DNA from: Acidobacteria bacterium Ga0077534
Lineage (GTDB): Bacteria; Acidobacteriota; Blastocatellia; Pyrinomonadales; Pyrinomonadaceae
NCBI GenBank assembly: GCA_001464455.1
Contig: LNEI01000025.1
Span: 124,001-188,000, forward strand
Length of the DNA stretch: 64,000 nucleotides
Reading direction: 5' to 3'
Both the position numbers and the translations under genes were made by a program. The notes below the pieces were generated by a model that made no database searches, was not told where the DNA came from, and saw nothing but the letters and a program-made list of their open reading frames with translations. Positions 10,250 through 46,872 of this stretch are shown piece by piece (the stretch's first letter is position 1; every line of letters starts with the position of its first letter).

Positions 10250-13200
10250 TCATTCCAGCCCTACAAAATCGACGTTGTTCAGATCACCGTTTATCGCCAG
10301 GATGAGAGAGGCAAAGCGGTAGCGTTTTGAAGAAACGCTGATCGTATAGGACTGCCCCGTCACTACGTTCCCAAAATTGTAAACGCCGAATGAACTTGTC
10401 GTGGCCGTTCGTCTGACACCCTGCGGATCGGTCAGCGTCACCGTAGCGCTTCGGAGACCGAGACCGGTGGGTGTCGTCACTCGACCGCTCACAGTAGCGG
10501 TCACGGCAACGCAGGTAGTCGAGAGCGTTACGTCGTCGATCAGAAAATCGTCACTGCCCGAGGTTCCTGCCGGACGACTGTAATTAAAGCTCAGCACTCG
10601 AGGAGCGGGTCCAGCAAATGTTGACAGATCGACTGTCCGCAATGTGTATGCTGCCTCCGCAGCCGCTGGCTCATTTATTGTCTGAACAACCGCTCCATCC
10701 ACGGATACTGTCAGCACTGAGCTCGAGGGAGTCGTAACCCTTGGAGCCCGGAAGTAGTACGTGAGCGTAGCCGAACGGCCCGGTTGGATGGATATCGTTT
10801 GCTGAGCCGTTCCGGTCTCGGAAGCGGCTCCGGAATTAGCTCCATCGAACCATACCCAGCCAGTTCCGGTTCGGGGCGTAGTCCCCGTTCCACAACCCGC
10901 GACCGTGCAGAGTGACGTGCCGAATGCGGTTGAGGTTGATGTCCAGTTCGGGTTGGTGCCGTTATTGGTGTTTGCCTCAAATCCGCCGTCGTTGACAATA
11001 TTCGCATTTGGGGTACAGCTCGGCGTAGGAGTCGGCGTTGCTGTTGGCGTCGGAGTTGGAGTCGGAGTCGGAGTTGGAGTCGGTGTTGGAGTTGGAGTTG
11101 GAGTTGGAGTTGGCACTGTGCAGGTGAAGATCAGCGAAAACGCTCGGACTGATCCAGTATCGTCAGTAACGCTATCACTAACGTTCAGTGTCCAGGTTCC
11201 CACTGCATTCTGGCCGTCAAATGCTGATAATTGGTTGTTCGGCGAAAATGAACCCGATGGGAACGCCGCATCAGTGCCCGCGCCGCACTGATTCTCGACC
11301 GGAGGGAAACCTCCGTCATCGTCAATAACGATTGCCGCCAGATTATTACTGTTGCATCCGGATTGACTTGCGGGAACTCCCGGCCTGTCAAGGAAGATCA
11401 CGTTTGTTCCACTCGGCGAGGTCAATCTAAATCTCAGATCGCCGACCCAGGAATGGTTGACCCCGACGGTCGTCGAAGCTGGATTCGCACTCGCCGTGCC
11501 ATCGAACCTGAAGTTTAGATCCGAGATCGTACATGCAGAGCCGACCACAATGGGTATGTTAACGCCCGCCGGAAGATTGTCCGTAATTGGAACAACAGGC
11601 CCGGTGAAACTAGCTGTTACTACGCCGGTTGGCGTCGGTGTCGCGACCGGAGTTGGCGTCGGGGTCACACCCGGCGTTGGCGTTGGCGTCGGTGATGGCC
11701 CACCAGCTAAGGGCAGTTCATATGCACCGCGTCCGTACGTCGCAATTTGGATCAAGCCGGTTGCCTGAGACGCGAATTCCATTACCGGAACCGGCGGCAA
11801 ACCGTTATTAAAGACTGCCCAACTTGAACCATTGTCTGTCGATCGGAACACGCCGATATCGGTACCTGCGTAAAGTGTCGTCGGGGTCAGCCGATCGATC
11901 ATAAAAGCACTAGTTGGAATATTTGGCAGGTTATTGCTGATGTCCGTCCAGTTCGTACCTGAGTTAGTTGAACGCAAAATATGTCCTGATCCATAGCCGG
12001 ATACGGTCAAATAAACCAGTGCGGGATTTGTCGGGCTGACAGTGATATTTCTTATCGAGCGATCAGGCAGACCTGCAGAGATATCGGTCCAAGTGGCCCC
12101 TCCGTTGGTACTTACCATTGCCCGGCCCTGGGTCGATCCAGTATAGATCACATTGAGATTGCTCCGTGCGATAGTAATTGCGCTCAACACATCATCGCCG
12201 CCTAGGGTTTGATCGAACATGCCTCCTGGGGCGGTCCAGGTCGGTGGAGTACCGCCATCGAGATCCCTGCTTAGGTCGTCGCAATCGGTGCAAATAAACA
12301 ATCGCCACGAGCCCGAATATATCCTCGGATCAACCCCGTTACTGACGATCGGCGGATAAAATCCGATTCGAGCGCCGTCGCCCTGCTCGCCAAAGGTCTC
12401 GGTGGTCGCGATAGTGGCCTGAGCTCCGGTGCCGTTATTCGTTACGCGCCCAATATTACCGTTTGTAAAGCTCGGGAAGACGATGGTCGGGTTAACCGGG
12501 TTGATGACCGACTTGCCGCCATCGCCGCCGACAAACTCTGTCCAGCCGAGGCCCGTGCCCGGGCGTCGCTGCGAGCCGTTGTCCTGAGTTCCGCCGTAGG
12601 TTCTGGCTGGGTCGGTCGGATGAAGGCTGATGCCGATGAATTGGACCAGCGAGAGAGTTTGATTCAGCGATGTAAACGTCGTTCCGCTATTCGTTGTTTT
12701 AAAGATGCCGCCGTCATTTGCAGCATAAAACGTGGTTGACGAACCCGGTTCGAAGGCGAATGCCTGCTGGTCGGTGTGTATCTTCTGCAATTGCTCGGTA
12801 AAGTTGCCCGGATCATACGGCGGAGCATGCGAATTTATTAGGTTTGTAAACGTAACGCCGCCATCTGTACTACGAAAGGTATCGCGAGCTCCGACATAGA
12901 TCGTATTGGGATCGGTCGGGCTAGCCTCCAGGTAAGTGTTGTAGCCAAACTGGCCCGGATCGAGGATATTATTTGAGATCACACCACGATCGCTAAACGT
13001 TGCACCTGCATCGTTGCTGACCTCGATCCGCAGCTCTCTCGGTGGCCCATCGGTTCCAAAATAAACATACACACGATCAGGCGCCGCGGGCGTGACAGCG
13101 ATGCGGAAATCTCTGGTCGAACCTTGCTCTGTCGTGTAAGGCGAAGCAAGCACGTTGGTCCAAGTCGTTCCGCCGTTGGTCGATCTGAACAGTCCGCGGG

Positions 13201-14299: not shown

Positions 14300-14588
14300 T
14301 TTATATTCCTTCTGGCTGCGTCTTGAATACAGAAAACGCAGCGCATCTTGCAACGAAATTCACTTTAGGTGCCTTAGTTGAGAAGCGACAATAGGCGGGC
14401 AACAGGCACACAAATTCCGCTAAAAACCAAGGTGTTTTATACGGCTCGTGCCAAAAATTTCAAGGTCGTCCGATTTGTTAAATATGAAGTCCGCCCAGAG
14501 GATAGTTCAGAACCGCCCGAAAAAGCAATTACGTTCGCGGATAAAAAGATCGTGGTTGATTAATATTTAGAGCTTACGGAGGAGTGCG

Positions 14589-17500
14589 CTAGTCCTTTAC
14601 TTTGGCGACCATCATTTCTCGATCTTTACTTTCTCGTCCTAGAAATACTCTTGGCCGTTGGAAATTGGATTCAAGGCTCGCTTTCTTTGGATTCGCCTTT
14701 TCTCGTTCTAGCTTTCGGGTTTTTCGGGCTGGAGTGTCAGATTCCTCGCGGTCGATTTGCGGCACTCTTTCGGCCGTGTACGCCAGCCATTCTCGCAGCA
14801 TTATTGTGTTGTCTTTTGGATCCCTATCCGCCTTCGCAGCTTTCAGGCCGTCCTCGATCAAAGCAAAAGTAAGATATCCATTTCCGAGGCGTGCGTTTTC
14901 TTTAGCATCCTGAAATCCTTGCGATGCGGTCAGGACGAACATACCTTTCTCGTAAGCGAGCTGAGCAAGCCCCTTTGTATTGAATGGGCCGCGGCGAGTC
15001 TCTGTTGACTCTATAGCCCGGCCTGAATTGCAGGCATCAATAATAAGCAGGATATTCTCAGCGGGAATATCCTGAACCGCCGACTGAATTTCAATGTCTG
15101 AAATGCCTCCGCGACTGATCGCTCGAACGGCATTTTCATCAAGGTTGTTCCTTTGACCCGTCCAGGAAATATCATGGAGGATCAGGTAGAACCGCTCGCG
15201 GTCTGCGATCCCATGGCCGGCGTAAAATATAACGACCGCATCCTCTGGCTGAGCTCTTTTTGAAACATCGTAAATCGCTTTGAGAACATCCGCCTTTGTG
15301 GCTTTATTGTCGACCAGCCGCAATATCTCGATTGTTTCAAAGCTGCCTATCGATCGCTGCTGCCTTACGAATTCCCGGGCAAACTCGTCAGCGTCCCGCA
15401 CAGCATAAGAAAGATCAAACTCTTTGTTTGAATAACTGTTCACGCCGACGGCAACCACGTACATGGAGCCTTTTCTTCGCAGGGATTCCGTTCCAAACAC
15501 TACCGTGGTGTCATCGCGACTCTTGATATCGTCACTATTGAACGCATAAGCAACAAAACGATTATCGCCTGCGACGACCGGAACGATTGTCTCAAGGGTC
15601 ACTGATTTTGCCCCGTTCAATACATCGCCGCGCCAGAACTTGACGAGCGTTCCGTTTCGAAAAAGCCTGACATCTTTAGCGCCGGCCGGTGCGCTGTCGA
15701 TCTCTACTCGAACGTCGACTGATCGTTGGGTGACCCGTTGAGAGGAGTCTGCTGCCGGAATCCTAAGCTTTACTGCGGGCTGTCGGCGGTCTTTGGTCGC
15801 GATATCTTTCTCACTCGGCAGATTTCCGGTCGCGAGGAGATCGGCGAGCAGGCCGGGTGACCAAAATTCGCTGAAGAACTCTTCTACAGGCCGAGAAATA
15901 AATGTGTTGTTATCAAATCTCCATGAGATCTGCCGCCAAGCGGCAGACGAACCATCAAAGAAGCCGAGCGGAGAAACGACCAACCAGTCACGTCCACCGC
16001 GAAGCGATAGGATCGAAAGTGCCCGGCTTCTATTCTTGAGATCCCAAATGATCAGGCTTCCGTCTTCGCTCGCACTGGCGAGTTGATCGCCGTTCCCGGC
16101 AAAACTCACGAGAAAAACGGAACCTGAATGTCCTGTCAAAACTGAGCCCGACGCAGTTCCGTCGAGCGGCCAAAGCCTTACCGTGCCGTCGATGCCGCCC
16201 GACGCGAGACTCTTGCCATCCGGATGGAACGCGAGTGAATAGACTTGTCCCCGATGGCCTGTGATCGAGGATAGCGGTAGACCGGTGTCAACCTCGAAAA
16301 GCCTTATCGTTTTATCGATGCCAGCCGTCGCAATTGTCCGGCCGTCGGGGCTGAAGGCGACCGTGTCGAGCTCGCCCGCTTTTGGCTCGATTACGGAAAG
16401 ACTCTTTCCCGTGACAACATCCCAAATTCGCAGAGTTCCGTCGATACCTGTTGAGGCTCCAAGTGAGCCGTCTCGGCCGAGAGCCACTGCCGTAACTTCG
16501 CCGCGATGATGCGTGATGAATCTTGGCGAAGTCCGGTTCGCTAGATCCCACACCCCAACCTGCCCGTCGGCACTCGCCGAGAGAAGCAGATCGCCTTTTG
16601 GGCTTATAGCGATACTCCCCACGGGACCCTTATGTCCGTCAAGACGGTCCAGCGGAGCAGACCCGTTTGTATCCCAGACAATGATCTTCCCGTCGGTTCC
16701 CGATGAGATCAAACGGCGGTTATCAGGATGAAAGACTACGGATCGTACGCGGGCTTGATGCCCAGCCAATGGAGCTAGTGCCTGACCGGTTACCAGGTCC
16801 CATAGTTTTACCGTGTTGTCATAGCTCGCCGCGGCCATCCAGCGACGGTCATCGCTGAATGCTACTCCGTACAACCCTGCCTTATTGTTTTCAAAAAGGG
16901 CAACGCGGGCTCCGGTCAACCTATCGACCACGACTGCGGAACCACTCCCGTTACCGAAGATCGCAATCTTAGCAGTAATGTCAAAAACTGCCGATTCGGG
17001 CTCACCGAGGTGCGAAACAGTTTCTTCCGGTAGGCGAGCAGTGGATTCTTTCTTAGTGGCGATCGAAAACGAACGAAGTGTTCCGCTCGAATCGGCCGCG
17101 GCGACCGAACCATCCGCGGCAAATCCCAGGGCAAGTATTCGCTGGCCTCGGCCAGGAAACGCAGCTTCTTCGCCGCCTCCCGGAAGTCTTGTAACGCGAA
17201 CCGCGCCGTCTTTTGCCCCTGAGGCAAGAGTTGAGCTCTTATTGCCAAATTTTAGGGCGGTGATCTCGGTTTCGTGGCCCTTGATCTCGCGAAGCCTTTT
17301 GGCTGTTGCGATATCAAAGATTCTTACCCTTTTATCGGATGAACCCGCAGCTAGGAATTTGCCGTCGGGCGAGAACGCTAGGCAATTGATCGGCGAGTTC
17401 CCAGTCTCACCAAAAGGGCCTTGGCCGCCAGTTGATATCTCAAGCCTCCAGATCTTTCCCTCTGACCCGGCTGCGAGCACTGTCTTCCCATCAGGGCCAA

Positions 17501-17885: not shown

Positions 17886-17896
17886 ATCGAAGAATC

Positions 17897-20800
17897 CTAC
17901 TCCAAGCCGATAAAGTCGACATTATTCAGTGCGGTTGTGACAGTAAGGGTTTTCGGAGTAAAACGGTAGCGTTTTACGTTTACTGATGCCGTGTAGATCT
18001 GGCCGGTTTCGATGCCGGCGAAGTTGAACACACCGAATGAACTGGTCGTCGCCGTTCGTGTCGTTCCGGTTGCGTCGATCAGTGTGACGACAGCATTCCT
18101 CAATGCAAGAAGGTTTGGCGTCGTGACCCTGCCGGAGATGGTTGTGAATGTCGGATTCGCACTCGATTGCTGCACCAGCACTGGTTCCGGCCGACCTGCG
18201 ATGCGGATCGTGCCGATGCGGCCCGCACCCGGGTTTGGCTGCGCCGTGAAGTGCACCGGCCCATTGCCGACGATCGCTCCTGAGTTGATCGTGATCCAAG
18301 GCACATCGCTCGCCGCCGCCCATTCGCAGGTTGGGCTGCTGGCCGCGACAGTGAACTGCGAAAGCCCTCCCGCCACCGGGATCGGCGTTGTATTGGCCGG
18401 CGAGAATGAGCACGATGATTCGGGTGAGATGTTGATCGTTGTATCCGCTGTCAGGTTTATATCAGCCGGCTGCGTAAAGACGAGGCCCGTCCGGCTCGCC
18501 TTCAGTCGGTATGTGTTCGGCGGCAGGTTGGTGTATGTGAATCGACCGTCAGCATCCGTATTCCTTCTGATCGTTATCGGCTGCGTGTTCCCGGTCGGCG
18601 TATACGTCAGATCGAGCCGTGTTCCGGCCCCGCCCGCCAGTACCTGGCCCGTTATGTTATAGGTCGTTGAGTTTGAGGCGATGAAGCTGTCGCCGGGAGT
18701 TCCGTTGTAAGTCGCCGCGATCGGTACCTCGAATGAGAGTACCGAGCGGACGAAGTTCTTGCCCGGCATTGCCGGCACTATGTCGTGCAGAGTGTTTGGC
18801 TGTGAAAGGCACTGATACGTCGCGTATGCCACTGACGCGATCACGGTCGAGCCTAGCGGCGAGCACGGGGCTTCTTCCCTGGGGTTCGGCCCGCGTGACG
18901 ATCCGATGATCACACCGAGGCCCGGCACCTCCGGGGCCGTGATGTTCCTGATGAAGCCGTAGATGAACCTCGGCGTCTGGTTCTGCGCATTTGATACAGT
19001 GTTCTGCCCGCCTATCGTCCCGGCACCCTCGGGCCCTTCCATCAGTTCATTAAGCAGCCGGAACGACGTATCAAGCGGAAAGTTGTTCGGGTCCCAAACG
19101 ATGCCCGTCGGACCGGAGATCGTCACCGTGTAGGCCGAGTCGTCGGCCGGAAGGTTGAACTCATAGACGCCGAGCGAGACGATCGTCGGTATGACGGTGT
19201 TCGAACCGTTAGATGCTGTGACCGTATCCGGCACAAGCGGCGACTGATTGCCGTTGTAGTTCTGCAGGTAAAGACGGAACAGACGCTCGTACTGCCGCCA
19301 GGACAGCTCGATCGTCCCCGAAGCCCCGTTCTTGCCGTCGATGGCTATCAGATACGTCGCTCCCTGATCGGCACGGAAGTTGACCTTACTCGTTACGTCA
19401 AAGAACGTCGTGTCGTCGTTCGTCCCGACCTGTGTGAAGTTTGTGAAGTTGCAGCCTGCTAGCCCGGCCGGACAGCGATAGATCGCCATTACCGTGTCGA
19501 ACGAAGACCCCGAAGTAGAAAAGCTCCACAATCCATTCGACGGTGCCGTCCAGACGTACCAGACCGACTTCGATGCCGTATTCCCCGCATGAGCAGGCTC
19601 GCCCGACTGGGCCGATGCGTTGACGTTCGAGCCTCGTTCCGGAGCGTTCGGCGGGTTGTTGGCTCCCGTGATCAGGTTCGGATTGTCGACAAAGTCGTTG
19701 GTGGGCGGGCACGTGCAGTATTGAAAGATCGTATGCGACTGTCCGGCGATGGCCATCACTTCCTGCCGGTCCGTAGTTCCCGGATGCGGCGGCATGGTGA
19801 ACGTCACCCGTCCGCCCGAGTACGCGGCATTCGTATAAAAGGTCCCCGAAGCCGCCGGAGCCGCCGCCGGCGGACAACCGGGCTGCGTGATCACATCGAA
19901 CGAAAACACCCCGCCCGTCATCGGCACATCAGTCCGCGGCCGAGAAAGCGAATAAGTACAAGCCCCCGGCCCGCCAACCGGTGCCTCAAACAGCGACAAA
20001 GTATAACTCCCCGCCCCGCCAACCGCTGCGATCGCCCGTATCGTATACGTACCCGTTACCGGCAGCGTAAAAAACCCAGTAGCGGGCAGGCGAGAATTGT
20101 TCACCCCATTCACCCCGCCGGCACTCGCCACAACCACCCCCGCGGGGTTTACAAGCTCTATCTTCGAGAAGAATAAAGATGTCTCCATCGTGACCGCAAC
20201 TTGCTGACCAGCATTCCCGGGAAACGAATACAAATCCGTCCGGTCATTCCCGATGACACAAGAAGTTGGCCCAACGGTACTAGAAACAGCCTGCCCAATC
20301 GTTATCGAAGCAGTTCCGCATGACGGTCCGCCGAGACCCTTCCAATTTGGATTAAAATCGTCCGATGAGTTGGACATCAGCCTTGTCTGGTTAGTTCCAT
20401 CCGCGTTCATTATCCACAGATCCTGACGCGTGTTGTTGCGAGGGCTGATAAAGATCAACCTGCTCCCGTCGGGTGACCACGCAGGCCTAAAATCTGCGCC
20501 GGGACTAGTAGTAAGTCGAACCTGATTGCTGCCATCGGCGTTCATGACGTAAATTTCAGGATCCACAGCGCGATCGCTCCAAAATGCGATCTTTGTTCCG
20601 TCCGGCGACCACGCGCATTGATTATCCGTAGAAGTATTGGTTGTAAGTCTGATCGGATTCGTTCCGTCCGCGTTCATAACGTAAAGTTCACCCGCCGCCT
20701 GGTCGCGGGAACTAGTGAATCCGATCTTTGTTCCGTCTGGAGACCAGCACGGAATTCGATCGTCAGCGGCATTATTTGTTAGGTTTATTGGGTTGGTTCC

Positions 20801-23002
20801 ATTGGCATTCATTAAATAGATCTCGTTATTACCGTCGCGATTTGTAGTAAATACAATTCGATCCCCATTTGGCGACCATTCGGGCGATGCGTCGTTAGCG
20901 GTGTTATTTGTAAGTCGCACCGGATTTGTGCCGTTGGCATTCATTACAACAATCTCGGGGAACAGCGCGACGTCGAACTGGTCGCTCTCCATTAGAATGC
21001 GAGATCCGTCCGGAGACCACTTTGGAGCTTCCTGATACGCTGAATCGTTCGTCAATCGAAACTGATTGGTTCCGTCCGGGTTCATGGTATAGATCTCCTG
21101 AAAACCGTCGCGAAGGCTGGAGAAAACGATCGATTGTTCACCGCCGCCGGTCGCGTTTGGTAGACGGTCAAGCGCCTGCACTTGTGCGGTTGTCATCGGA
21201 ACGTCATAGAGCCGGATACGCGCGACATTTCCGTCAGAAGCTTCCAAAATGTTGTCGTCTTGAAAAAAACTGAGATTATTGGCTGGACTTATCTGAAAAG
21301 TGCCCCCGTCGGGCTGATTTACACGAAGAACGCCGTCGCGATAGCCGCGAACCGTTCCGCCAGCTTCGCGGACGATAACTAGTTGGAGATACGTGTTCCC
21401 TACGAAGGGGACGGTGTTTGTTGGCTCAAATTCCAGACGGCCGTCCTGAATGTACGCTCCATCATCACTTGTTCGTCCATCAAAGCTCGCTACACGCCGA
21501 AACCCGCTTACCTGGTCGAAACGAACCAGGATCACGATCGTATAGGTCGCACCATTCGGAATCACGCCGTTGGAAGGCGTTAGCTGGAGCCCACTGTTAA
21601 ACGGAAATCGCAGCGTCTGACGATTATAGCCATCGATAGTGTCGGTGACGAACGAATTGGCACCACCGCTTCCGGTGAGATTGGTCATAGCCGGAGCGCC
21701 AGCGACCGAACTGGTAGGATTGCCCTGAAACTGGTAATCGGCTTTAGGAAGAGGCGATGGCTCAGGAGTGGGAGTTGGAGCGCCCGACTGTATTTCAAAG
21801 GCACCTATGTCGGCTGCGTCGCCGCCCGGTGCATTCGGTTCGGGCAAGTCTACGGGCCTCGGAGACCCTCGCTGATCGGTCGTCGAGCCAAAACTACTGC
21901 CCTTGTCTATCGCGGGGCTGCCAGCAAGTAAGGCACGGGTTTGGGTTGGGCCGCCATTCGACGCGAGAGGAGCAAGTTGCGGATTATTCACACCAACTAT
22001 GTTGCCGTTTACGCCGTTCGTCAAACCACCACCCGTTCCGATAAGATTGAACGAACTGGAAGCATCGACCGTTCCCTCAATATCAAAGGGCACACCGCCG
22101 GACATGTTGCCGGAAACTATCGAATTCCTTACCGTCACGACATTCGTTCCAGTCTCTTCCAGCCAGATCGCTCCCCTTTGGCCTGCATTTGCCGTGATGT
22201 TATTCGTTATCGTGCAGTTTGTCAGATTTAAGACTGAGACCCCTCCACTGGGATTGTTTCGGATACCAGAGTTAAGGCCGTCGCTCGTGTTGCCGCTGAT
22301 GGTCGTATTGATCAATGTCGAGGTCGAGCCCTCGTTCCTGATAACGTCACCGACGGGTGCAGAATTGCCCGAGAATGTTGAATCTGTCACTGTCATTGTC
22401 GAAGAACTTAGATAGAGCGCGGATATCTGCTGCGCGGTATTATTTGTTATTGTCGAGCGATTGATGTTTAAGGTCACGCCAATGGTAATCATCACCCCCG
22501 CATCCCCGGTACCGACGTTGTTTGTGATGACGAGATCATTGAAGGTAAGTATCGTACCTAATGCTTGCATTGCACCGCCGCCGCCGGAGCGTCCGTTGCG
22601 AATGGTCAGACCGTCGACAGTTGCGGTCCCCCCGACAAAATTGAAAATGCGGCTTGAATTGTTACCGGATATAGCCAGAACAGCGGCACCGGGGCCGTCT
22701 ATGGTCAGGTTCTTGTCGATTAGGATCTCGCCGCTCGTAAGCGTAATAGCTCCGGTAACCCCACCGCCAAACACGATCGTATCGCCAGGTACTGCGTCAA
22801 TCACCGCCTGTCGCAGGCTGCCCGCTCCACTGTCGTTCGTATTCGTGACAGTCAAGGTTGCAAACGGACGGGCCGTATCGTCAACTTGCCGGGCCTCGGC
22901 CCTTGGACCAAAATAAACCGTAAGTGCTGCTAGCACCGCCGCAAACAAGATAGTCAAAAATGATGGGAATCGAAGTTGAATCTGCGAATTAGTAAAGGAC
23001 AT
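17897..23002 (-). CDS. Giant multidomain exoprotein: beta-helix, LamG, PD40 propeller, PPC, BACON, C-terminal tail domain
   Basis: About 1701 residues from the ATG at 23002, chosen because GGAGAGAG lies just upstream and a signal peptide follows (SFLTILFAAVLAALTVYFG). Domains in order: a right-handed beta-helix starting LTVTNTNDSGAGSLRQAV; a concanavalin/LamG-like module; a TolB-type propeller with seven or so MNADGTN / WSPDG repeats; a pre-peptidase C-terminal (PPC) module; a BACON-like domain; a second jelly-roll (SVWYVWTAPSNGLWSFS); an unassigned region; a carboxypeptidase-regulatory-like domain; a BACON domain (CEWAAASDVPWITINSG); and the shared tail (SGRVTTPNLLALRNAVVTLI ... FIGLE). Most likely a surface or extracellular binding protein. 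It sits 67 nt after the Oar-like receptor gene and 11 nt before the WD40-caspase gene. Part of the coding strand (about 19.9-20.25 kb) is unusually G-rich. Confidence 0.9.
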   Translation of the reverse strand: MSFTNSQIQLRFPSFLTILFAAVLAALTVYFGPRAEARQVDDTARPFATLTVTNTNDSGAGSLRQAVIDAVPGDTIVFGGGVTGAITLTSGEILIDKNLTIDGPGAAVLAISGNNSSRIFNFVGGTATVDGLTIRNGRSGGGGAMQALGTILTFNDLVITNNVGTGDAGVMITIGVTLNINRSTITNNTAQQISALYLSSSTMTVTDSTFSGNSAPVGDVIRNEGSTSTLINTTISGNTSDGLNSGIRNNPSGGVSVLNLTNCTITNNITANAGQRGAIWLEETGTNVVTVRNSIVSGNMSGGVPFDIEGTVDASSSFNLIGTGGGLTNGVNGNIVGVNNPQLAPLASNGGPTQTRALLAGSPAIDKGSSFGSTTDQRGSPRPVDLPEPNAPGGDAADIGAFEIQSGAPTPTPEPSPLPKADYQFQGNPTSSVAGAPAMTNLTGSGGANSFVTDTIDGYNRQTLRFPFNSGLQLTPSNGVIPNGATYTIVILVRFDQVSGFRRVASFDGRTSDDGAYIQDGRLEFEPTNTVPFVGNTYLQLVIVREAGGTVRGYRDGVLRVNQPDGGTFQISPANNLSFFQDDNILEASDGNVARIRLYDVPMTTAQVQALDRLPNATGGGEQSIVFSSLRDGFQEIYTMNPDGTNQFRLTNDSAYQEAPKWSPDGSRILMESDQFDVALFPEIVVMNANGTNPVRLTNNTANDASPEWSPNGDRIVFTTNRDGNNEIYLMNANGTNPINLTNNAADDRIPCWSPDGTKIGFTSSRDQAAGELYVMNADGTNPIRLTTNTSTDNQCAWSPDGTKIAFWSDRAVDPEIYVMNADGSNQVRLTTSPGADFRPAWSPDGSRLIFISPRNNTRQDLWIMNADGTNQTRLMSNSSDDFNPNWKGLGGPSCGTASITIGQAVSSTVGPTSCVIGNDRTDLYSFPGNAGQQVAVTMETSLFFSKIELVNPAGVVVASAGGVNGVNNSRLPATGFFTLPVTGTYTIRAIAAVGGAGSYTLSLFEAPVGGPGACTYSLSRPRTDVPMTGGVFSFDVITQPGCPPAAAPAASGTFYTNAAYSGGRVTFTMPPHPGTTDRQEVMAIAGQSHTIFQYCTCPPTNDFVDNPNLITGANNPPNAPERGSNVNASAQSGEPAHAGNTASKSVWYVWTAPSNGLWSFSTSGSSFDTVMAIYRCPAGLAGCNFTNFTQVGTNDDTTFFDVTSKVNFRADQGATYLIAIDGKNGASGTIELSWRQYERLFRLYLQNYNGNQSPLVPDTVTASNGSNTVIPTIVSLGVYEFNLPADDSAYTVTISGPTGIVWDPNNFPLDTSFRLLNELMEGPEGAGTIGGQNTVSNAQNQTPRFIYGFIRNITAPEVPGLGVIIGSSRGPNPREEAPCSPLGSTVIASVAYATYQCLSQPNTLHDIVPAMPGKNFVRSVLSFEVPIAATYNGTPGDSFIASNSTTYNITGQVLAGGAGTRLDLTYTPTGNTQPITIRRNTDADGRFTYTNLPPNTYRLKASRTGLVFTQPADINLTADTTINISPESSCSFSPANTTPIPVAGGLSQFTVAASSPTCEWAAASDVPWITINSGAIVGNGPVHFTAQPNPGAGRIGTIRIAGRPEPVLVQQSSANPTFTTISGRVTTPNLLALRNAVVTLIDATGTTRTATTSSFGVFNFAGIETGQIYTASVNVKRYRFTPKTLTVTTALNNVDFIGLE

Positions 23003-23069
23003 TCTCTCTCCAGCTTGCATAGGGTCTGATCCTGCAAACGAGATCTCCAATATTTATTTATCGCTCATG

Positions 23070-28179: not shown

Positions 28180-28258
28180 GTGAGACCTCCGTTGAGAATT
28201 AAACGATCGAGCGGATGGCAATTCGCTTTCGCTACTGATTTGGATGTAGACCGCCATC

Positions 28259-34190: not shown

Positions 34191-34315
34191 CGGTGTACTG
34201 AAATAGTTCGGCCGGTGACTGCAATCACCGGCCGAGGCGGTACACCGATCCGAAACGGAATGTCTCGGCCGATGCGACCGTACGACTCCATCCTAGGACA
34301 TTCCGTTTCTTTTTA
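34191..34315 (+). ncRNA. Candidate structured leader RNA ending in a terminator
   Basis: Three nested or consecutive stems. P1 is CGGTGTAC/GTACACCG (34191-34198 with 34240-34247). It encloses the perfect 10-bp hairpin CGGCCGGTGA/TCACCGGCCG with loop CTGCAA (34209-34234). Then a perfect 13-bp stem GAAACGGAATGTC/GACATTCCGTTTC (34252-34264 with 34297-34309) is followed by TTTTTT. The last stem plus T run is a good rho-independent terminator, 103 nt before the start of the giant exoprotein gene. The whole could be a regulated (attenuated) leader, or the 3' end of a small RNA. Confidence 0.5.
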
Positions 34316-34417
34316 TCAATTGCTGATTGAACGTTTTACCACCCGGCTCGGGCGCCGCTAGGTTACATAGAACCCAACGTCTGACCCCTGACTTTGAAAT
34401 GAAAAGGAGAAATTTGT

Positions 34418-37400
34418 ATGTCCGAAACAAACGGAATTAAGCCAGCGAAAGGCCACCAAAAGCCCCCAAGCCCGGCCAAAAAAAGATTTAGGACCCACGT
34501 CCAACTACTAACCGCGATCACCCTAATAACCCTGATCGCCACCACCGCCGCCACCACCAACGCGGCCTCAATGTCGTTCCTTGATTCCGTCAAGAGCTTC
34601 TTCGGCATAGAAATCTCGCAAACGGCTCCAGCGGCTACAATGTCGCCAAACCTCGGGTCGATCGGCATCAGCCCGCTCAACCAGGGGCTTAATGTCCCAG
34701 GCGGGTCTGCGACTTATATAGTCACCGTCAACAGCCTCGGCGGAAGTGGAGCGTTTACTGCAAATCTTAGCGCAGCGATATTGCCCAGCAATGTTTCCGC
34801 AATGTTCAGCCCTGCGACGTTGAGCTTCACGGGCGGAGCCGCCTCGCAGATGTCGACTTTGACATTGACCGGCACAACTGCCGCAATCAATGGTCCTCAT
34901 TCAATCGTGATTCAGGCAGTCGATAGCGGCAATCCCGGAGACCTCGTCGACACCTCCGCACTTGGTGCCACGGTCACTATCACAAATGGATGCGATATTC
35001 CCGTAGTAACGTCGGATCCAAGCAACGTTACCGTAACCTACGATAATAATGCTGTCTTTACGGCAGCGGCCACCGGAACAGCCCCAGCAGTTCAATGGGA
35101 AGAAAAAATAGGAGCGGCACCGTTTACGGCGATGTTCGGTGAAACGAACCTTACGCTCACACTGGTTAACCCACCCGTTTCTTACACCGGTCGTCAGTAT
35201 CGAGCTGTATTTACGAATTCCTGTGGTACAGATACTACGACCGAGGCAACGTTGACGGTCAACCCGGGAACACCAACGGCTACGATTGACAACACACCTG
35301 CGACATACAATGGCACGCCGCAAACGGCAACCGTTTCCTGCCTCGGTGGCGGAGCGGCCACTCTGGCTACTGGCGGCACAGGTACCAATGCGGGTTCATA
35401 CACCGCAACCGTAAATTGCGCGGCGAGCGCGAATTACAATGCGGAAAGTGGGCTTGTACCTCTAAACGACCCATTTGTGGTCAACAAAATAGCCCCGACG
35501 GCATGGATCACAAATAGTCCGAGTCTTGTCACGGGCTCTGAACAGACGGCTCAGGTTGCATGCCTCGGCGGCGGCGCGGCGTCAATTAACTCAGGCGGCG
35601 TCGGCACGATCGTCGGAACCTATGCGACGACAGTCGCTTGTGCGGCTAGTACAAACTACAACGCGACTACGGTATCTGCAGGAAACTTTGCAATCGTAGA
35701 TCCAAACGTAATTCTTGAACAGCCGAGCACGCTAAATTGGTTCTACTATGACGACGTGGCTCCCGAGAGTTTCCTCACATCGTTAGAAGATTTTGTTGGA
35801 AGTCCGGTAGCTCCAACACTGGGCCCTGGTAGCGCGAGAATTATGGCAGCGGCCTCTCCGCTCCCACAATCGAAGCTAACTCTTGGAACCACGCTTTTGA
35901 ACGGCGTACGCTTCAAGGACATCACGACACTTACATATGAAACGTACCTCGTCAGCGGAACGATGCCTCCACGCCTTCAGTTCAACGCCGACTTTGACAC
36001 AAATGATGCCCCGAATTGGCAAGGTCGAGTAGAGTTTGTAGTTCCTAATCCGGACGCAACCGGCACGTGGGTAACACGAGATGTGTTGGCCGGGAACTTG
36101 AAGTTCTCTTACGGTGGCCACGTATCGGGCAATCCATGGCTCGTCGGTGCGAATCCATGCCCCATCTCAGGTGCTGGATGTAGCGTTGCTTTCGTACGCG
36201 AGAACTACCCGAATCTTCGTATCTCGGTCAAACTCCCCGACAACAGCCCTGGCGATCCATTTGGAGCCCTTTTGTTCCGCGTGGAACCAAGTCACGACAC
36301 GCGTGTAGACAACGTGGTAATAGGTATCAACGGCGACAGTCCTGTTTTGCCAAACACCTACAGAACGTTTAATTTCGAGCAGGCGAGCTCAAGTGTAACG
36401 GTGAACTGTCCAGCAGGGCCTTTCACATACACAGGCGGCCCAATCGTACCGCCATGTACCGCGAGCTATCTAACCTCTCCAGATGGAGAGACCGGAAGCG
36501 CAGCGGTGTCGTACACGAACAACACCGCCGCAGGAACGGCGACGGCAACCGGAACATACCTTGGTGATGATAATCACGCAGGCAGCACCGGAACAGCCAA
36601 TTTCACGATCTTAAAAGCCGACCCAATCGTTACCTTCGGTGCACCTCCAACCCCAACGTATTTGGGAGGCAACTTCCCAGTTACGGCAACGACTACGAAC
36701 ACTGATCTCACTACGGTGCTGTTCAGCGTTTCGTCAGGACCCTGTGCGATTGTGAGTCAGACAGGTAATTCTGCAACACTAAGTTCAAGTGGAGCAGGAA
36801 CCTGTGTCGTTCAAGCAGCCGGTGCTGAAACGGCGAACTTCAACGCGACTTCTGCTACGCAGAACGTAACCATCGCCAAGGCGACACCTAGCGCGACCCT
36901 TGCGATCACGAATTCGCCAACAGCAGAAGACGGAAATCCGCACATGCCGAATGTTGTGGTTAGCTCAAGTACGACTCCAGGGACGGTAGTTGTCACAACG
37001 CCTGGACTTCCGGGTCCGATTACCGGCACGACTGCGGTGTTTGGTACATTTGTACCGGATGACGCCGTTAACTATAATTCGGTCACCGGTGTCTCGGCTG
37101 GCGACTTCGTAATCGTCGCTGCCACCCCGGTTATCGTACAGCCTGGCAACAGTTCATGGGGCAATTGGGATGACGATCTTAATGTTCCAGCTGCGGTTCA
37201 GGATGATTTCGTTGCTGGTCCTGAAGATCCGGCTGCCGGTGACGGCAGCGCACGGCTGCAAGGGTCAACGCCTAGCGTTAAACTTGCGTTAGCCAGCCAG
37301 CTATATCTGGGTACCCGCGTAGCGGACATTACTAGCTTGGGCTACGATACCTATCTCCAGACTGGATCGGTGCCTTACCTTCAGTTTGACGTTGACTTTG

Positions 37401-40400
37401 ACGGCCCACTAGCCGGATCGGGTGGGTTCCAGGGAAGGGCAATGTTCTTGCCTACAGTGGGCATCGCAAGTGGCGAATGGCAACGATGGAATGCACTTTC
37501 TGATCAAGGCCGATGGGCATTCTCCGGAGCACCCGGGGATGCCATTTGTCCCATTCAGGCTCCTCCAGGCCCTGTATGTACCTTGCAGGATGCACTTACT
37601 GCTTACCCGGAAATGTCCATACGGCTCGGAGCGACTAGCTTCGGACTGTTGTTCAGAACCGATCCGGGCAGCCTCGCCTACGTTGACCGGCTCGTCGTGG
37701 GCGTTAACGCGAACAGTCCAACGTTCCCAAGCACCGTGAGAATGTTCGACTTCGAGCAGGGCACGTCACAGACGTTTGTTACTTGTTCGGTTCCCTCTGT
37801 TGCTTACAATGGCGGTCCGCACAACATCTGCAGTGCCTACTACACGCGTTCAGACGACGGGTTCGTAACGCAATATCCGACTGGAGTGACATACACCCCA
37901 GACAACATTAACGCTGGAACGGTCACTGCAAGTGCATCGTTCTCAAACGATAACTTTAGTCTTAGCAGCGATTCGGAGACATTCGAAATAACGCCGATCG
38001 CTCCGACTTGTAATATCGTTGGTTACAGCGGTATGTATGACGGCCTTCCGCATGGGGCAAGTGGAACGTGTGACGTAGCAGGTACATACAATTACGGGTC
38101 GACGTTCACAGACTTCCCGGGTGGTACGGCTAATTGGACGTTTGATCCTACAAGTGATAACTACACGAACGCCAGCGGTTCTGTTGCGATCACTATTGCT
38201 AAGGCTCCATCAACGGTTAATATCACGTGTCCAGCTAGCGTAACCTATAACGCGACGGCGCAGGAGCCCTGCGATTATACGGTCACTCTTCCCGGAGACC
38301 CAGCAATTGGCCCACTTGATGTTCCTACCGGTGGATACACTAACAACACAAATCCGGGTACGGCAACTGCGTATTTCGAGTACGCAGGTGACCTCAATCA
38401 CACGGCAGACGATGATACGGAAACATTCCTGATCGACTTCTGTCCGACTCTGTCGATTCCGAACCTTACGTCGGCAACTGAGGTTGACAAGGCAATACCT
38501 GTTAACGCAACTGATCTGACGCCGGGTAGCGTTCAGTCGGTGCAGTTCGATATTAAGTACAACGCGGCAGAACTAACGCCGGTACCCGATCCGGGGAATC
38601 CGGGGTTTATTCTTACTCAGCCCGGATCTGGAATAACCGCTTCCTCGGGAACATTCGAGGTATATGCCGCCAAGCTACCAGGTCAGGATACAGTGAGGGT
38701 AACGATCTTCACGACCGCAAGCGGGGCGACGCTGATCGGTGCTGGCACGCTAACCAATGTAATGATGCATGTCGAAGCCCTAACCGGTAACGACGATGTA
38801 GACCTTGACCTCGATGGTGTACTTGTTAACGGCGATCCGCTGTTTGGCGGCGCGTGCACATCACCTCCGGTTGATGGTGTATTGGAGGTCGTTATTACCA
38901 CTACGGCTACAACCGTTAGCTCTGCACCGAATCCTTCGGTCTATGGAGACGCAGTTCCGTTTACGGCTTCGGTTGTCTCGGTGCCACCGGGAGTTCCGGT
39001 CAACAGCGGAAGTGTTGATTTTGAGATAGATGGAGTGCTTTATCCGGCTTGCTCTGGAGCAAACGCTATCCCTGTCAATGGATCGGGTCAGGCCGTTTGT
39101 ACCACTCCTGCATTGCCGGGTTCGGCATTGGCAGGTGGGGCCCACACGGTACGGGCGTACTATCTGGGAAATCTGGACTTCACTGCGAGCAATAGCGGTG
39201 ATTCTCCGTACTACTCGCATCAGGTGGATCCGGCTAACCAGACGATCACCTTCGGCCCGTTGGGTGACAAGGTATATGGAGACGCAGATTTCACCGTCAG
39301 TGCAACGGCTTCGTCAGGGCTAGCGGTGACTTTCGCGAGCTTCCCCGACAACACCGTGTGTAGTGTTACTGGGAATTCCGTTCACATAAATGCGATCGGA
39401 ACGTGTACCATCCGCGCTTCACAGGGCGGCAATGGCAATTACAACGCGGCACTACCAGTTGACCAAGCCTTCACTGTGACACCGGCTCCTTTGACCATTA
39501 CGGCAGATGACCGCACGAAAACGTACGGCGCGGCTTTGGTTCTAGGAACGACGGATTTCAGTATCGTTGGACCAACCCAGCTGTTCAATGGTGACACGAT
39601 CACTGGTGTCTCGTTGGCAAGCGCCGGTGCGGCCGCGACTGCATCGGTTGGTAGTTACGATATCGTGCCGAGTGCCGCAGTATTCGGTGTGGGATCGGCG
39701 TCTAACTACACGATTACGTATCTAAGTACCGTCGCTGGCGGCGGTGGTGAACTTGTTGTTGACCCGGCGCCTCTAACCATTAAGGCGAATGATCGTACGA
39801 AGACGTACGGTTCGACGCTAGCAATGGGCACAACTTTATTCAGCGTCGTATCGCCCACCCAGTTGTTCAACGGAGATACGATTTCAGCTGTGACGTTGAC
39901 GAGCGCTGGTTCCGTAGCGGCGGCGGCGGTTGGTGATTACGACATCGATGTTAGTGGTGCGGTGTTCTCTTTGGGATCAGCGTCCAACTACACGATCTCG
40001 CACCTAACGACCATAGGCACCGGTGGCGGCAAGCTGACGGTTGGTGCGGCTGATCTTACGATCAGAGCGGACGATCGTACAAAGGTGTACGGCCTGACGC
40101 TTGGATTAGGCACGACGCAATTCAGCATCGTTTCGCCAACTCAGCTCTTAAATGGCGACGCGATCTCTGATGTGACGCTGACCAGTGCTGGAACGGTAAA
40201 CACGGCGTCCATTGGCGACTACGATATAGTGCCGAGTTCCGCCGTTTTCTCTGCGGGAACCGCATCGAACTATAACATCACCTACCTGACGACAATAGGT
40301 ACTGGCGGCGGAAAACTAACCGTGACCAAGGCCTTTATTACCAAAACAGGTGGCAGTGGTTACGCTGTCTACGATGGGGTCACGCACTCACCGTCGCCTT

Positions 40401-41821
40401 GCGTTGTCAGTGTTCAAACTGGCGCCAATATCGATGGCTTGACGTGTACAAACGATCCATCCAGCGTCGGCCCCGCTCCTAATGTCTACGTGATCAACTC
40501 GATCCTAGTTGGACCCAATCAGTCAAACTACGACGTTTCCTCAACCGCGGGATCGTTTGAGATCGAATCTGGAACGGTATCGGGTAACGTTATGTACGGT
40601 GTCGATCCTAAGCAGGTGCCGGGAGTGACTCTGAGTGCTGTTGGCACACCGCCGACATCAACGACGACGGTCTTCCCTGTTCCTGTATCAACACCGCAGT
40701 ACACGTTAGTCAACTTCGGTGCCGGTTCTTACACGGTAACTCCATCCAAGCAGCGTCAAGTATGCGGTTCCCTAAACGGAGTCTTCATTAATGACGCTAC
40801 CGAGGTGGCGAAGCATGTGGTTGGTGCGGTCACCTTGTCAGGTCCTGCATTAACAGCTGCAAGGGTTACTGGTTCGCCAATACCAACGGCGCAGGATGCT
40901 GCTTTGATCGCTCAGAGTGTTGTCGGCAACTGTTCCAATTCGTTTAACAACGCAGGTAAATGGAGATTCAATGCCTCCAGCTTAAACGGGACGGTAGGTA
41001 CCGCATTACCGGCAACCGACATGATCCAGAACATCACGTACAACAGTCTTATTGGTTTCGATTACACCGATGAGAATTACACGGCCATCATGGTCGGTGA
41101 CGTGACAGCACCATACTGGAGCAATGCGATCTCAGCGACCGCCAGACCAGCGATCGGTGAGGATGCCCCTCGCGCAACGGTAGGCACCATTAACGCCTTA
41201 CCGGGTTCTTCGGTGGTTGTTCCGTTCAGGATCGACAATCTGAAGGGTGCGAATGTCGAATCTTACCAGTTCGATATCGTCTATGACCCGGCGGTAGTCA
41301 CACCGGATGCGGTTGCGGCCGACCTGACTGGGACTCTTGGGGTAAACCTGCTTGCGGTGTACAACGTCGTCGAGCCAGGCTTGCTCAAGGTCGGTGTCTA
41401 CGGAGCATTGCCTGCGAATGGCGATGGAGTCTATGTGAATCTGAAATTCTCTGTCAACGGAGCAATGGGCACAAGCTCACCGCTTTCGATCCAGGAATTC
41501 ATGTTCAATGACGCATCCGTTACTGCCCGTACTTTCGATGGTGGAATCAATGTAAGTTCATCTAGTGGTGTTGCCATTAGCGGGCGTGTGTTGGCTCCTG
41601 GAGGCGAAAGCGGGCTGAGGAACGCACGAGTCACTCTTACAAGTGATTCGGGTGAAACCGTGTTCGCAACAACCGGTACCTTTGGGTACTTCCAATTCGG
41701 CGAACTTACCGTTGGTCGCACCTATGTTGTGAGCGTACAGTCGCGTCGCTTCAGGTTCGCACCGGTGAACGTCGTTCTCAACGATAATGTGGCCAATCTC
41801 GAGCTTATAGCTCAAGAGTAG
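34418..41821 (+). CDS. Giant exoprotein with Ig-like/MBG repeats, cohesin- and dockerin-like modules and shared tail domain
   Basis: 2467 residues, with AAAAGGAG upstream of the ATG. A long basic n-region and hydrophobic segment (LLTAITLITLIATTAATTNA) serve as signal peptide. Then come Ig-like/MBG modules and two copies of a jelly-roll-like module (VILEQPSTLNWFYYDD and VIVQPGNSSWGNWDDD). A cohesin-like domain follows (TLSIPNLTSATEVDKAIPVN ...). Three near-exact 94-residue MBG_2 repeats (PLTITADDRTKTYG etc.) lie at about 1689-1970. After that come a pair of degenerate dockerin-like segments (GVFINDATEVAKHVVG and PIPTAQDAALIAQSVVG), a second cohesin-like domain (VESYQFDIVYDPAVVTPDAV), and the shared tail (SGRVLAPGGESGLRNARVTL). 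Probably a surface adhesin or scaffold. The next giant gene follows after 107 nt. Confidence 0.9.
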   Translation: MSETNGIKPAKGHQKPPSPAKKRFRTHVQLLTAITLITLIATTAATTNAASMSFLDSVKSFFGIEISQTAPAATMSPNLGSIGISPLNQGLNVPGGSATYIVTVNSLGGSGAFTANLSAAILPSNVSAMFSPATLSFTGGAASQMSTLTLTGTTAAINGPHSIVIQAVDSGNPGDLVDTSALGATVTITNGCDIPVVTSDPSNVTVTYDNNAVFTAAATGTAPAVQWEEKIGAAPFTAMFGETNLTLTLVNPPVSYTGRQYRAVFTNSCGTDTTTEATLTVNPGTPTATIDNTPATYNGTPQTATVSCLGGGAATLATGGTGTNAGSYTATVNCAASANYNAESGLVPLNDPFVVNKIAPTAWITNSPSLVTGSEQTAQVACLGGGAASINSGGVGTIVGTYATTVACAASTNYNATTVSAGNFAIVDPNVILEQPSTLNWFYYDDVAPESFLTSLEDFVGSPVAPTLGPGSARIMAAASPLPQSKLTLGTTLLNGVRFKDITTLTYETYLVSGTMPPRLQFNADFDTNDAPNWQGRVEFVVPNPDATGTWVTRDVLAGNLKFSYGGHVSGNPWLVGANPCPISGAGCSVAFVRENYPNLRISVKLPDNSPGDPFGALLFRVEPSHDTRVDNVVIGINGDSPVLPNTYRTFNFEQASSSVTVNCPAGPFTYTGGPIVPPCTASYLTSPDGETGSAAVSYTNNTAAGTATATGTYLGDDNHAGSTGTANFTILKADPIVTFGAPPTPTYLGGNFPVTATTTNTDLTTVLFSVSSGPCAIVSQTGNSATLSSSGAGTCVVQAAGAETANFNATSATQNVTIAKATPSATLAITNSPTAEDGNPHMPNVVVSSSTTPGTVVVTTPGLPGPITGTTAVFGTFVPDDAVNYNSVTGVSAGDFVIVAATPVIVQPGNSSWGNWDDDLNVPAAVQDDFVAGPEDPAAGDGSARLQGSTPSVKLALASQLYLGTRVADITSLGYDTYLQTGSVPYLQFDVDFDGPLAGSGGFQGRAMFLPTVGIASGEWQRWNALSDQGRWAFSGAPGDAICPIQAPPGPVCTLQDALTAYPEMSIRLGATSFGLLFRTDPGSLAYVDRLVVGVNANSPTFPSTVRMFDFEQGTSQTFVTCSVPSVAYNGGPHNICSAYYTRSDDGFVTQYPTGVTYTPDNINAGTVTASASFSNDNFSLSSDSETFEITPIAPTCNIVGYSGMYDGLPHGASGTCDVAGTYNYGSTFTDFPGGTANWTFDPTSDNYTNASGSVAITIAKAPSTVNITCPASVTYNATAQEPCDYTVTLPGDPAIGPLDVPTGGYTNNTNPGTATAYFEYAGDLNHTADDDTETFLIDFCPTLSIPNLTSATEVDKAIPVNATDLTPGSVQSVQFDIKYNAAELTPVPDPGNPGFILTQPGSGITASSGTFEVYAAKLPGQDTVRVTIFTTASGATLIGAGTLTNVMMHVEALTGNDDVDLDLDGVLVNGDPLFGGACTSPPVDGVLEVVITTTATTVSSAPNPSVYGDAVPFTASVVSVPPGVPVNSGSVDFEIDGVLYPACSGANAIPVNGSGQAVCTTPALPGSALAGGAHTVRAYYLGNLDFTASNSGDSPYYSHQVDPANQTITFGPLGDKVYGDADFTVSATASSGLAVTFASFPDNTVCSVTGNSVHINAIGTCTIRASQGGNGNYNAALPVDQAFTVTPAPLTITADDRTKTYGAALVLGTTDFSIVGPTQLFNGDTITGVSLASAGAAATASVGSYDIVPSAAVFGVGSASNYTITYLSTVAGGGGELVVDPAPLTIKANDRTKTYGSTLAMGTTLFSVVSPTQLFNGDTISAVTLTSAGSVAAAAVGDYDIDVSGAVFSLGSASNYTISHLTTIGTGGGKLTVGAADLTIRADDRTKVYGLTLGLGTTQFSIVSPTQLLNGDAISDVTLTSAGTVNTASIGDYDIVPSSAVFSAGTASNYNITYLTTIGTGGGKLTVTKAFITKTGGSGYAVYDGVTHSPSPCVVSVQTGANIDGLTCTNDPSSVGPAPNVYVINSILVGPNQSNYDVSSTAGSFEIESGTVSGNVMYGVDPKQVPGVTLSAVGTPPTSTTTVFPVPVSTPQYTLVNFGAGSYTVTPSKQRQVCGSLNGVFINDATEVAKHVVGAVTLSGPALTAARVTGSPIPTAQDAALIAQSVVGNCSNSFNNAGKWRFNASSLNGTVGTALPATDMIQNITYNSLIGFDYTDENYTAIMVGDVTAPYWSNAISATARPAIGEDAPRATVGTINALPGSSVVVPFRIDNLKGANVESYQFDIVYDPAVVTPDAVAADLTGTLGVNLLAVYNVVEPGLLKVGVYGALPANGDGVYVNLKFSVNGAMGTSSPLSIQEFMFNDASVTARTFDGGINVSSSSGVAISGRVLAPGGESGLRNARVTLTSDSGETVFATTGTFGYFQFGELTVGRTYVVSVQSRRFRFAPVNVVLNDNVANLELIAQE
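39482..40327 (+). repeat. Three tandem MBG_2 coding repeats, 282-bp period
   Basis: Units start at 39482, 39764 and 40046, exactly 282 bp (94 codons) apart, each with ADDRTK or NDRTK then TYG/VYG and ending SNY-x-I. DNA similarity is high but not identical, which points to old duplication kept under selection. Confidence 0.85.
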
Positions 41822-41838
41822 CCACACATTCGGTCAAC

Positions 41839-41869
41839 TGCGAGCGAGGCCGCCATGGCCTCGCTCGCA
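41839..41869. other. Strong 13-bp hairpin between two giant exoprotein genes
   Basis: TGCGAGCGAGGCC / GGCCTCGCTCGCA with loop GCCAT, 17 nt after the stop codon at 41821. There is no T run, so it may stabilise the upstream mRNA end or cause partial, rho-aided termination rather than act as an intrinsic terminator. Confidence 0.7.
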
Positions 41870-41928
41870 ATCCCATCATCAAAAGCGGGTCGGGTCCCGG
41901 TCGATTTTCTCTCTCAGGAGTTAGATTT

Positions 41929-46872
<4,944 letters not shown>

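What the first reader, a model, noticed from the sequence alone, without database searches (positions are those of the whole stretch)
10250..46872. One C-terminal domain shared by four unrelated giant exoproteins
The last ~80 residues of the proteins at 10250-14299, 17897-23002, 34418-41821 and 41929-46872 are clearly homologous: SGRV-x-TP, then LRNARVTLT, a T-x-SFG-x-(Y/F)-x-F core, and SV-x-x-(R/K)R(Y/F)RF. Three of the four end in GLE. The upstream domains are wholly different (BNR propeller, beta-helix/LamG, MBG, InlB repeats). A fixed tail at the extreme C-terminus of otherwise unlike exported proteins is what a sorting, secretion or surface-anchoring signal looks like, compare the type IX secretion CTD. 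The fold itself resembles carboxypeptidase-regulatory-like domains.
Basis: partly seen in the sequence, partly recalled or inferred. Interest (0 to 1): 0.65.

Follow-up and report, generated by a model that had tools for sequence, protein, structure and literature searches.

The report
Swappable tail domain on acidobacterial exoproteins
A bacterium of the Acidobacteriota ends about fifty otherwise unlike exported proteins with the same small folded domain, and relatives put other end-pieces on the same proteins, which suggests an undescribed way of placing or holding proteins at the cell surface.

Summary
In detail: four exoproteins in the window end in one homologous ~83-residue domain (two lie on the minus strand). 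The genome (by its named relatives Pyrinomonadaceae) has 49 full-length strong copies, all 0-1 residues from the stop, one per protein; 81 of 82 strong copies held from other genomes lie within 10 residues of the stop. Hosts mostly carry N-terminal export signals (42 of 45). The domain is a transthyretin-like CarboxypepD_reg fold (pLDDT 97) with its own signature (LRN, TTSSFG, SKRYRF, DFVGLE); no NCBIfam sorting-signal model matched. Best evidence for a function is tail swapping: M36 peptidase, choice-of-anchor V and MauG-type bodies end in this tail or, at the same border, in an FG-GAP-like tail; a VPS10/BNR body ends in this tail or in a related domain plus DUF4214. Among 119 family genomes, strong tail and DUF4214 exclude each other (1 both, 3 neither), along genus lines. 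No machinery was found: SprA 0 of 297 (no control rang), PorV family 0 of 60. Weaker relatives of the domain are penultimate, before DUF4214, in sister genera. Best reading: an interchangeable C-terminal surface-localisation module, more probably retention than a T9SS-type signal.

The parts
10250..14299 (-). Exoprotein 1: N-terminal hydrophobic signal, VPS10/BNR propeller, PT-rich linkers, P-domain, C-terminal tail
10253..10501 (-). C-terminal tail domain (ends VGLE-stop)
   Evidence: G000:C25:134253-134498
17897..23002 (-). Exoprotein 2: N-terminal hydrophobic signal, choice-of-anchor Q, LamG-like (below cut-off), PD40 propeller, C-terminal tail
17900..18148 (-). C-terminal tail domain (ends IGLE-stop)
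   Evidence: G000:C25:141900-142148
21788..21985 (-). choice-of-anchor Q domain (NF041518) in exoprotein 2
   Evidence: residues 356-421, E 1.4e-21
34418..41821 (+). Exoprotein 3 (2467 aa): MBG_2, Big_3_5, Cohesin, C-terminal tail
41174..41554 (+). Cohesin-type domain directly before the tail of exoprotein 3
   Evidence: residues 2253-2379; E 1.2e-15 for the whole protein
41570..41818 (+). C-terminal tail domain (ends IAQE-stop)
   Evidence: G000:C25:165570-165818
41929..46872 (+). Exoprotein 4 (1647 aa): Cohesin, InlB-type repeats (16 stretches), PT linker, C-terminal tail
46624..46869 (+). C-terminal tail domain (ends VGLE-stop)
   Evidence: G000:C25:170624-170869

Best explanation
The tail is a lineage-specific, folded C-terminal surface-localisation module. 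The protein is exported by Sec (N-terminal signal), the small transthyretin-like domain folds at the extreme C-terminus, and its conserved basic/aromatic residues (R17, R31, K59-R60-Y61-R62) and end (DFVGLE) are recognised by one common partner at or outside the outer membrane, which retains the protein on the surface or in the matrix and may help it across. Relatives solve the same task with other end-pieces (FG-GAP-like propeller, DUF4214), so the tail works like one option in a choice-of-anchor set. Shown here: terminal position, single copy, export-type N-termini, predicted fold, private signature, tail swapping at a shared border, and near-exclusion between this tail and DUF4214. Inferred: that the conserved residues form a binding surface (model coordinates were not examined), that the role is localisation, and that it is retention rather than translocation. 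The partner is unknown.
For: Position and copy number: 53 of 53 own-genome ORFs or fragments with a stop end 0-1 residues after the domain (of its 55 rows, L010/481 aa is a cut copy of L041 and L070 is a weak internal match); strong copies 49 of 49 own and 81 of 82 elsewhere within 10 residues. In 46 proteins only the tail is conserved; they hold 48 Pfam families at E<=1e-5 (25 shown). N-terminal signals 42 of 45 against 23 of 47. Protein-level conservation looks old: 135 of 1378 DNA pairs align at E<=1e-5, and 23 of the 25 best are 65-75% identical. Tail swap: 7 body clusters carry more than one tail type with alignments that come within 80 residues of the border on both sides. In the M36 cluster 4 bodies have this tail and 25 the FG-GAP-like one, up to 65% identical, e.g. 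32-1089 of 1093 against 2-1047 of 1049. Choice-of-anchor V: this tail in 3, FG-GAP-like in 7 complete ORFs. In G000 and G357 two neighbouring genes, V and M36, both have this tail, where seven other genomes have FG-GAP-like tails on V. NCBIfam names these bodies after anchors used elsewhere: M36 hits the myxosortase-, rhombosortase- and T9SS-dependent models; V is over cut-off for choice_anch_V with either tail. Of 119 genomes, tail strong in 69, DUF4214 in 48, both 1, neither 3.
Against: No partner or machinery identified. An FG-GAP-like propeller is not a sorting signal known to me, so interchangeability could mean only that the C-terminal slot is permissive. Weaker relatives of the domain are penultimate, followed by DUF4214, in sister genera. 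The DUF4214 versions of M36 (L228, L230) and V (L197) are longer proteins with other sequence before the end, not clean swaps. The exclusion with DUF4214 follows genera and may reflect few events. Most held M36 orthologues lack the tail, so the enzyme does not need it.
Confidence: 0.6

Rival explanations
1. A true outer-membrane secretion signal that works like the T9SS C-terminal domain but feeds an undiscovered translocon (or a secretin of the type IV pilus/type II kind); the domain is read by the machine and perhaps cleaved.
For: Strict terminal position and single copy, export-type N-termini. T9SS export signals are also C-terminal beta-sandwich domains (PMC4804311: title and start of abstract in the listing). 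M36 and V genes, which swap tails, lie beside a type IV pilus operon; its secretin in G000 is over the PilQ cut-off.
Against: SprA 0 of 297 (no control rang), PorV family 0 of 60. The same bodies carry FG-GAP-like tails in the same genera. The pilus neighbourhoods were chosen because secretin and M36 shared a contig, so they are a lead, not a test.
Confidence: 0.22
2. A structural end cap: a stable beta-domain that protects long exported proteins from C-terminal proteolysis or ends their folding, with no trafficking role and no partner.
For: Confidently predicted small fold of a kind found in many surface proteins; other tails replace it.
Against: A cap needs no conserved polar residues, yet R17, N18, S37, K59, R60, R62 and the last residues are kept across unlike bodies and are rare or absent in the sister domain; the tail is also on short ORFs of 176-397 aa.
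Confidence: 0.13
3. A recombination product: the tail-coding DNA spreads by gene conversion and has no selected function.
For: 7 of 55 tail matches touch a contig end (within 5 bases), where 0.2 of the 64 contig ends are expected to fall in tail DNA; two pairs of tails share exact runs of 98 and 62 bases.
Against: Most pairs have diverged at DNA level while the protein is conserved; the domain stays exactly terminal; replacement happens near one border in several protein families.
Confidence: 0.05

Closest known systems
Type IX secretion C-terminal domains (sorting domains of Bacteroidota)
   Same: About 80 residues, beta-sandwich, extreme C-terminus, once per protein, many unlike Sec-exported proteins per genome (T9SS side from general knowledge and the listing).
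   Different: No match to a T9SS sorting-domain model; transthyretin-like CarboxypepD_reg fold; no PorV-family match and no SprA match (uncontrolled); swapped with FG-GAP-like tails on the same bodies.
MYXO-CTERM / GlyGly-CTERM / PEP-CTERM sorting tags with myxosortase, rhombosortase, exosortase
   Same: Lineage-specific C-terminal tag on dozens of proteins; M36 and choice-of-anchor V bodies carry such tags in other phyla according to NCBIfam names.
   Different: No motif + transmembrane helix + Arg-rich end; here a soluble folded domain ending in DFVGLE. Exosortase matches occur in 49 of 60 family genomes, with and without the tail, and are missing in some strong-tail genomes such as G038 and G141.
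CarboxypepD_reg (PF13620) / SdrD B-like / transthyretin-like domains
   Same: All 45 tails match PF13620; Z 12.0 to the transthyretin-like domain of carboxypeptidase D (1qmu_A), 76 residues, rmsd 1.4.
   Different: Those are usually internal (general knowledge; here the sister-genus relatives are); this subfamily is terminal and single with its own signature.
DUF4214 (PF13946) C-terminal modules
   Same: Ends homologous bodies in sister genera; named a likely surface-anchoring domain in segmented filamentous bacteria (PMC12780176, one passage read).
   Different: Unrelated domain; 117 of 119 family genomes do not have both (1 both; 3 neither), one module or the other in 115.

Membership tests
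Type IX secretion CTD | Extreme C-terminus, once per protein, on Sec-exported proteins | tested here: met
   (home-made signal score, 42 of 45)
Type IX secretion CTD | Sequence match to a T9SS sorting-domain model | tested here: not met
   16 NCBIfam families matched at E<=1 among 45 tails, none a sorting domain; the T9SS-named one is PorE, 7 of 45, best 5.4e-5; also an anammox S-layer model, 21 of 45, best 3.7e-5
Type IX secretion CTD | SprA translocon in the genome | tested here: inconclusive
   0 of 60 and 0 of 297, but no control genome rang
Type IX secretion CTD | PorV/PorQ family protein in the genome | tested here: not met
   0 of 60; one of 14 controls (Bacteroides ihuae) rang, below cut-off
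PEP-CTERM / MYXO-CTERM / GlyGly-CTERM tags | Short motif, transmembrane helix, basic end | tested here: not met
   alignment of 50 tails shows no hydrophobic helix; model all-beta
CarboxypepD_reg / transthyretin-like domain | PF13620 sequence match | tested here: met
   45 of 45 at E<=0.01, best 3.4e-14
CarboxypepD_reg / transthyretin-like domain | Transthyretin-like beta-sandwich fold | tested here: met
   pLDDT 97.2 (predicted); Z 12.0 to 1qmu_A (76 residues, rmsd 1.4)
Choice-of-anchor set (interchangeable surface tails on one body) | Same body occurs with different C-terminal modules | tested here: met
Choice-of-anchor set (interchangeable surface tails on one body) | The tail places or holds the protein at the surface | not testable with these tools
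   needs cell fractionation

The most novel reading that the evidence does not exclude
Pyrinomonadaceae run an undescribed protein-sorting system: a soluble transthyretin-like C-terminal domain is the address label read by a dedicated, still unknown outer-membrane receptor or translocon, evolved independently of T9SS, and lineages switch their secretome between this label, an FG-GAP-like tail and DUF4214.
Probability: 0.35. Interest if true: 0.82.

Novelty: new variant of a known kind. Interest (0 to 1): 0.62.

Why it matters
How Acidobacteriota place proteins on their surface is, to my knowledge, little studied (general knowledge, not from a call). This gives a profile that marks about fifty candidate surface proteins in this genome and fewer in relatives, names residues to mutate, and supplies natural tail swaps on the same enzyme that make the role of the tail directly testable. 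It would also give DUF4214 and FG-GAP-like tails a shared functional hypothesis.

Tried and rejected
T9SS membership: not filed, for lack of a sorting-domain match and of PorV; SprA absence stays uncontrolled. No T9SS domain is among the 50 rows shown of the fold comparison, which excludes nothing. Classical type II secretion: the GspD model matches 59 of 60 genomes, none over the curated cut-off, while 2 of 14 controls exceed it; the secretin next to M36 in G000 is a PilQ, so a dedicated T2SS was not shown. Exosortase: 49 of 60, in genomes with and without the tail, so not the partner by phyletic pattern. Gene conversion as the cause: rejected for most copies. The first single-linkage clustering of bodies joined 36 of 45 through shared repeats and was not used. 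Literature: in the listings (several show only part of the papers found) no title or abstract start deals with this tail; Pyrinomonadaceae + secreted + C-terminal gave 0 papers.

Full report
The window is G000:C25:124001-188000 of a 4.2 Mb draft genome. Close relatives carry names in one scan: Pyrinomonadaceae bacterium DTUACD1, a Chloracidobacterium sp., Blastocatellia and Acidobacteria MAGs. I therefore place it in Pyrinomonadaceae, Blastocatellia, Acidobacteriota (lineage); this is inference.

Observation. Four predicted exoproteins end in one homologous domain; two lie on the minus strand, which the finding did not say. A profile of the four tails found 68 matches in the own genome at E<=0.01: 49 at >=77 bits, one nearly full-length divergent copy at 50 bits, several copies cut by contig ends, and weak matches at or below about 33 bits, of which I examined one (L070, internal). 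In 53 of 53 distinct ORFs or fragments with a stop the domain ends 0-1 residues before it (of 55 rows, L010/481 aa was a cut duplicate of L041 and L070 is the weak internal match). One partial match (C11:97803), two matches at the starts of contigs C21 and C22 and the 11 weakest matches were not examined. With a stricter definition (>=60 bits, distinct ORFs with a stop in the held DNA) the result is 49 of 49 in the own genome and 81 of 82 in other genomes within 10 residues of the stop; the exception, L117, runs 98 residues further in a stretch that looks like read-through. None of the 131 has two strong copies. Copies from other genomes were mostly best matches, so that sample is biased to strong copies.

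Hosts of the tail. In an alignment of 46 proteins (one, L040, cut at a contig end) all invariant and nearly invariant columns fall in the tail. Pfam finds 48 families among the 46 at E<=1e-5 (25 shown), led after CarboxypepD_reg (35) by Cohesin 12, Calx-beta 7, PD40 6, DPPIV_N 6, Beta_helix 4, with single enzymes such as an M36 metallopeptidase. N-terminal hydrophobic segments after a positive start occur in 42 of 45 against 23 of 47 other large ORFs of the same genome, by a home-made score, not a signal-peptide program. No NCBIfam sorting-signal model matches the tails, but choice-of-anchor Q is found in 5 and V in 1 of the 46 proteins.

The domain. AlphaFold2, on window tails and tails of named relatives only, gives pLDDT 97.2 and pTM 0.85, all beta. 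The closest solved folds are transthyretin-like domains: carboxypeptidase D (Z 12.0, 76 residues, rmsd 1.4), also the archaeal S-layer entry 8qox (Z 11.4, 82 residues, rmsd 1.8) and staphylococcal UafA and SdrD. All 45 tails match PF13620. Against 12 related domains from sister genera, residues conserved here and rare there are P11, L16, R17, N18, D25, G28, T34, S36, S37, F38, V56, S58, K59, R60, R62, D78, G81, L82 and E83. The GLE end is not universal: copies of other genomes end in other short, acidic or basic variants.

Distribution. In a sample of 297 Acidobacteriota genomes, best E below 1e-14 occurs in 15 of the 19 genomes of the own family and in one other genome, G026, where contamination and transfer cannot be told apart. 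In 119 family genomes there is a gap: 69 strong, the rest at 1e-12 or worse. In 20 stretches fetched from those other genera a motif search found 22 DUF4214 ORFs, all with DUF4214 at the C-terminus; in 12 of the 22 a related CarboxypepD_reg-like domain after a PTAA-type linker stands just before it. DUF4214 matches 48 of 119 genomes; both in 1 (G298), neither in 3. By genus it is 10 with the tail, 19 with DUF4214, one shared (g168), so kinship limits the statistical weight.

Tail swapping. The VPS10/BNR body of G000 (L053) aligns over 57-834 of 838 with a G075 body over 107-925 of 925, 45% identity; the first continues into the tail, the second into a CarboxypepD_reg-like domain plus DUF4214. 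An M36 stretch matches in 71 of 119 genomes at E<=1e-30. Among held M36 ORFs the tail ends 4 (G000, G357, G339, G358), an FG-GAP-like tail most of the others, DUF4214 ends two longer proteins (L228, L230, by end motif), and three end otherwise. The choice-of-anchor V protein has the tail in 3 ORFs and an FG-GAP-like end in 7 complete ORFs; a G339 ORF that runs off its locus also has FG-GAP-like repeats, so G339 looks mixed; L197 is a longer protein with V-like sequence that ends in DUF4214. A MauG-type di-haem protein has the tail in G000 and an FG-GAP-like end in G105 in the same gene order. Overall 7 body clusters, out of 114 tail, 37 FG-GAP-like and 34 DUF4214 bodies, hold more than one tail type with alignments that come within 80 residues of the border on both sides; several contain ORFs cut at the N-terminus by the locus end. 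No ORF carries two of the three ends. The FG-GAP-like model matches 74 of 119 genomes: 68 of the 69 strong-tail genomes and 6 of the other 50.

Machinery. SprA: 0 of 60 and 0 of 297, no control rang. PorV family: 0 of 60, one control rang weakly. GspD: 59 of 60 match, none over cut-off. Exosortase: 49 of 60. In G000 and seven further genomes of five genera in all, V and M36 genes lie beside a type IV pilus operon; PilM, PilO and PilQ were identified in G000 by model, the neighbours by position only. These loci were picked because secretin and M36 shared a contig, so this is a lead, not a test.

Mechanism. Shown: a terminal, single, conserved folded module on exported-type proteins, exchangeable near a fixed border. 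Inferred: a common partner, because polar residues are kept on unlike bodies; surface localisation, because the same bodies carry known anchors in other phyla (NCBIfam names), and in Myxococcus a protein without such a tag is released through type II secretion (PMC11980579, abstract and passages). Retention is preferred to translocation because the alternatives include an FG-GAP-like propeller and DUF4214, the latter called a likely surface-anchoring domain elsewhere (PMC12780176, one passage). DNA comparison argues for old, selected copies rather than recent spread, although 7 tail matches touch contig ends where 0.2 are expected.

Verdict. A real, well-defined module for which I found no description in the searches named; new variant of a known kind (lineage-specific C-terminal sorting or anchoring domains), with an untested but sharply testable function.

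Noticed in passing
G000:C16 (L242, L243) and L244-L250: An M36 metallopeptidase and a choice-of-anchor V protein lie beside a type IV pilus operon (PilM, PilO, PilQ identified in G000) in eight selected genomes of five genera; possible pilus- or secretin-linked exoproteins.
   Followed up: partly
L256-L261 (G385, G384, G387, G386, G366, G392): A DUF4214-terminated protein lies next to an exosortase in six selected genomes, in a conserved locus that reads as exopolysaccharide export (only G000's exosortase and ATPase of that locus were checked by model).
   Followed up: partly
L200-L227, last ~280 residues: An FG-GAP-like end with DYDGDG repeats on most held M36 orthologues; 48 of 49 held ORFs with it end within 10 residues of the last match. 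Itself a candidate C-terminal module.
   Followed up: partly
rows matching GspD from position 335/336: An additional secretin match starting at model position 335/336, in ORFs mostly of about 500-580 aa, is listed only for DUF4214-type genomes (and G319), not for strong-tail genomes; perhaps another pilus-type secretin.
   Followed up: no
G026:C379:234-479 (L086): One genome outside the family has three matches, the best at 1.1e-18 on a contig end: contamination or transfer.
   Followed up: no
window 14589-17885 (-), 47480-49360 (+), 49347-52487 (+): Next to the tail genes: a protein that reads as WD40 repeats plus a caspase-like domain, a clostripain-like protein and a TPR-CHAT protein (names from reading the sequence, no search run).
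   Followed up: no
window 41174-41554 and 42130-42531: Cohesin-type domains in exoproteins 3 and 4, and in 12 of 46 tail proteins of the genome.
   Followed up: no
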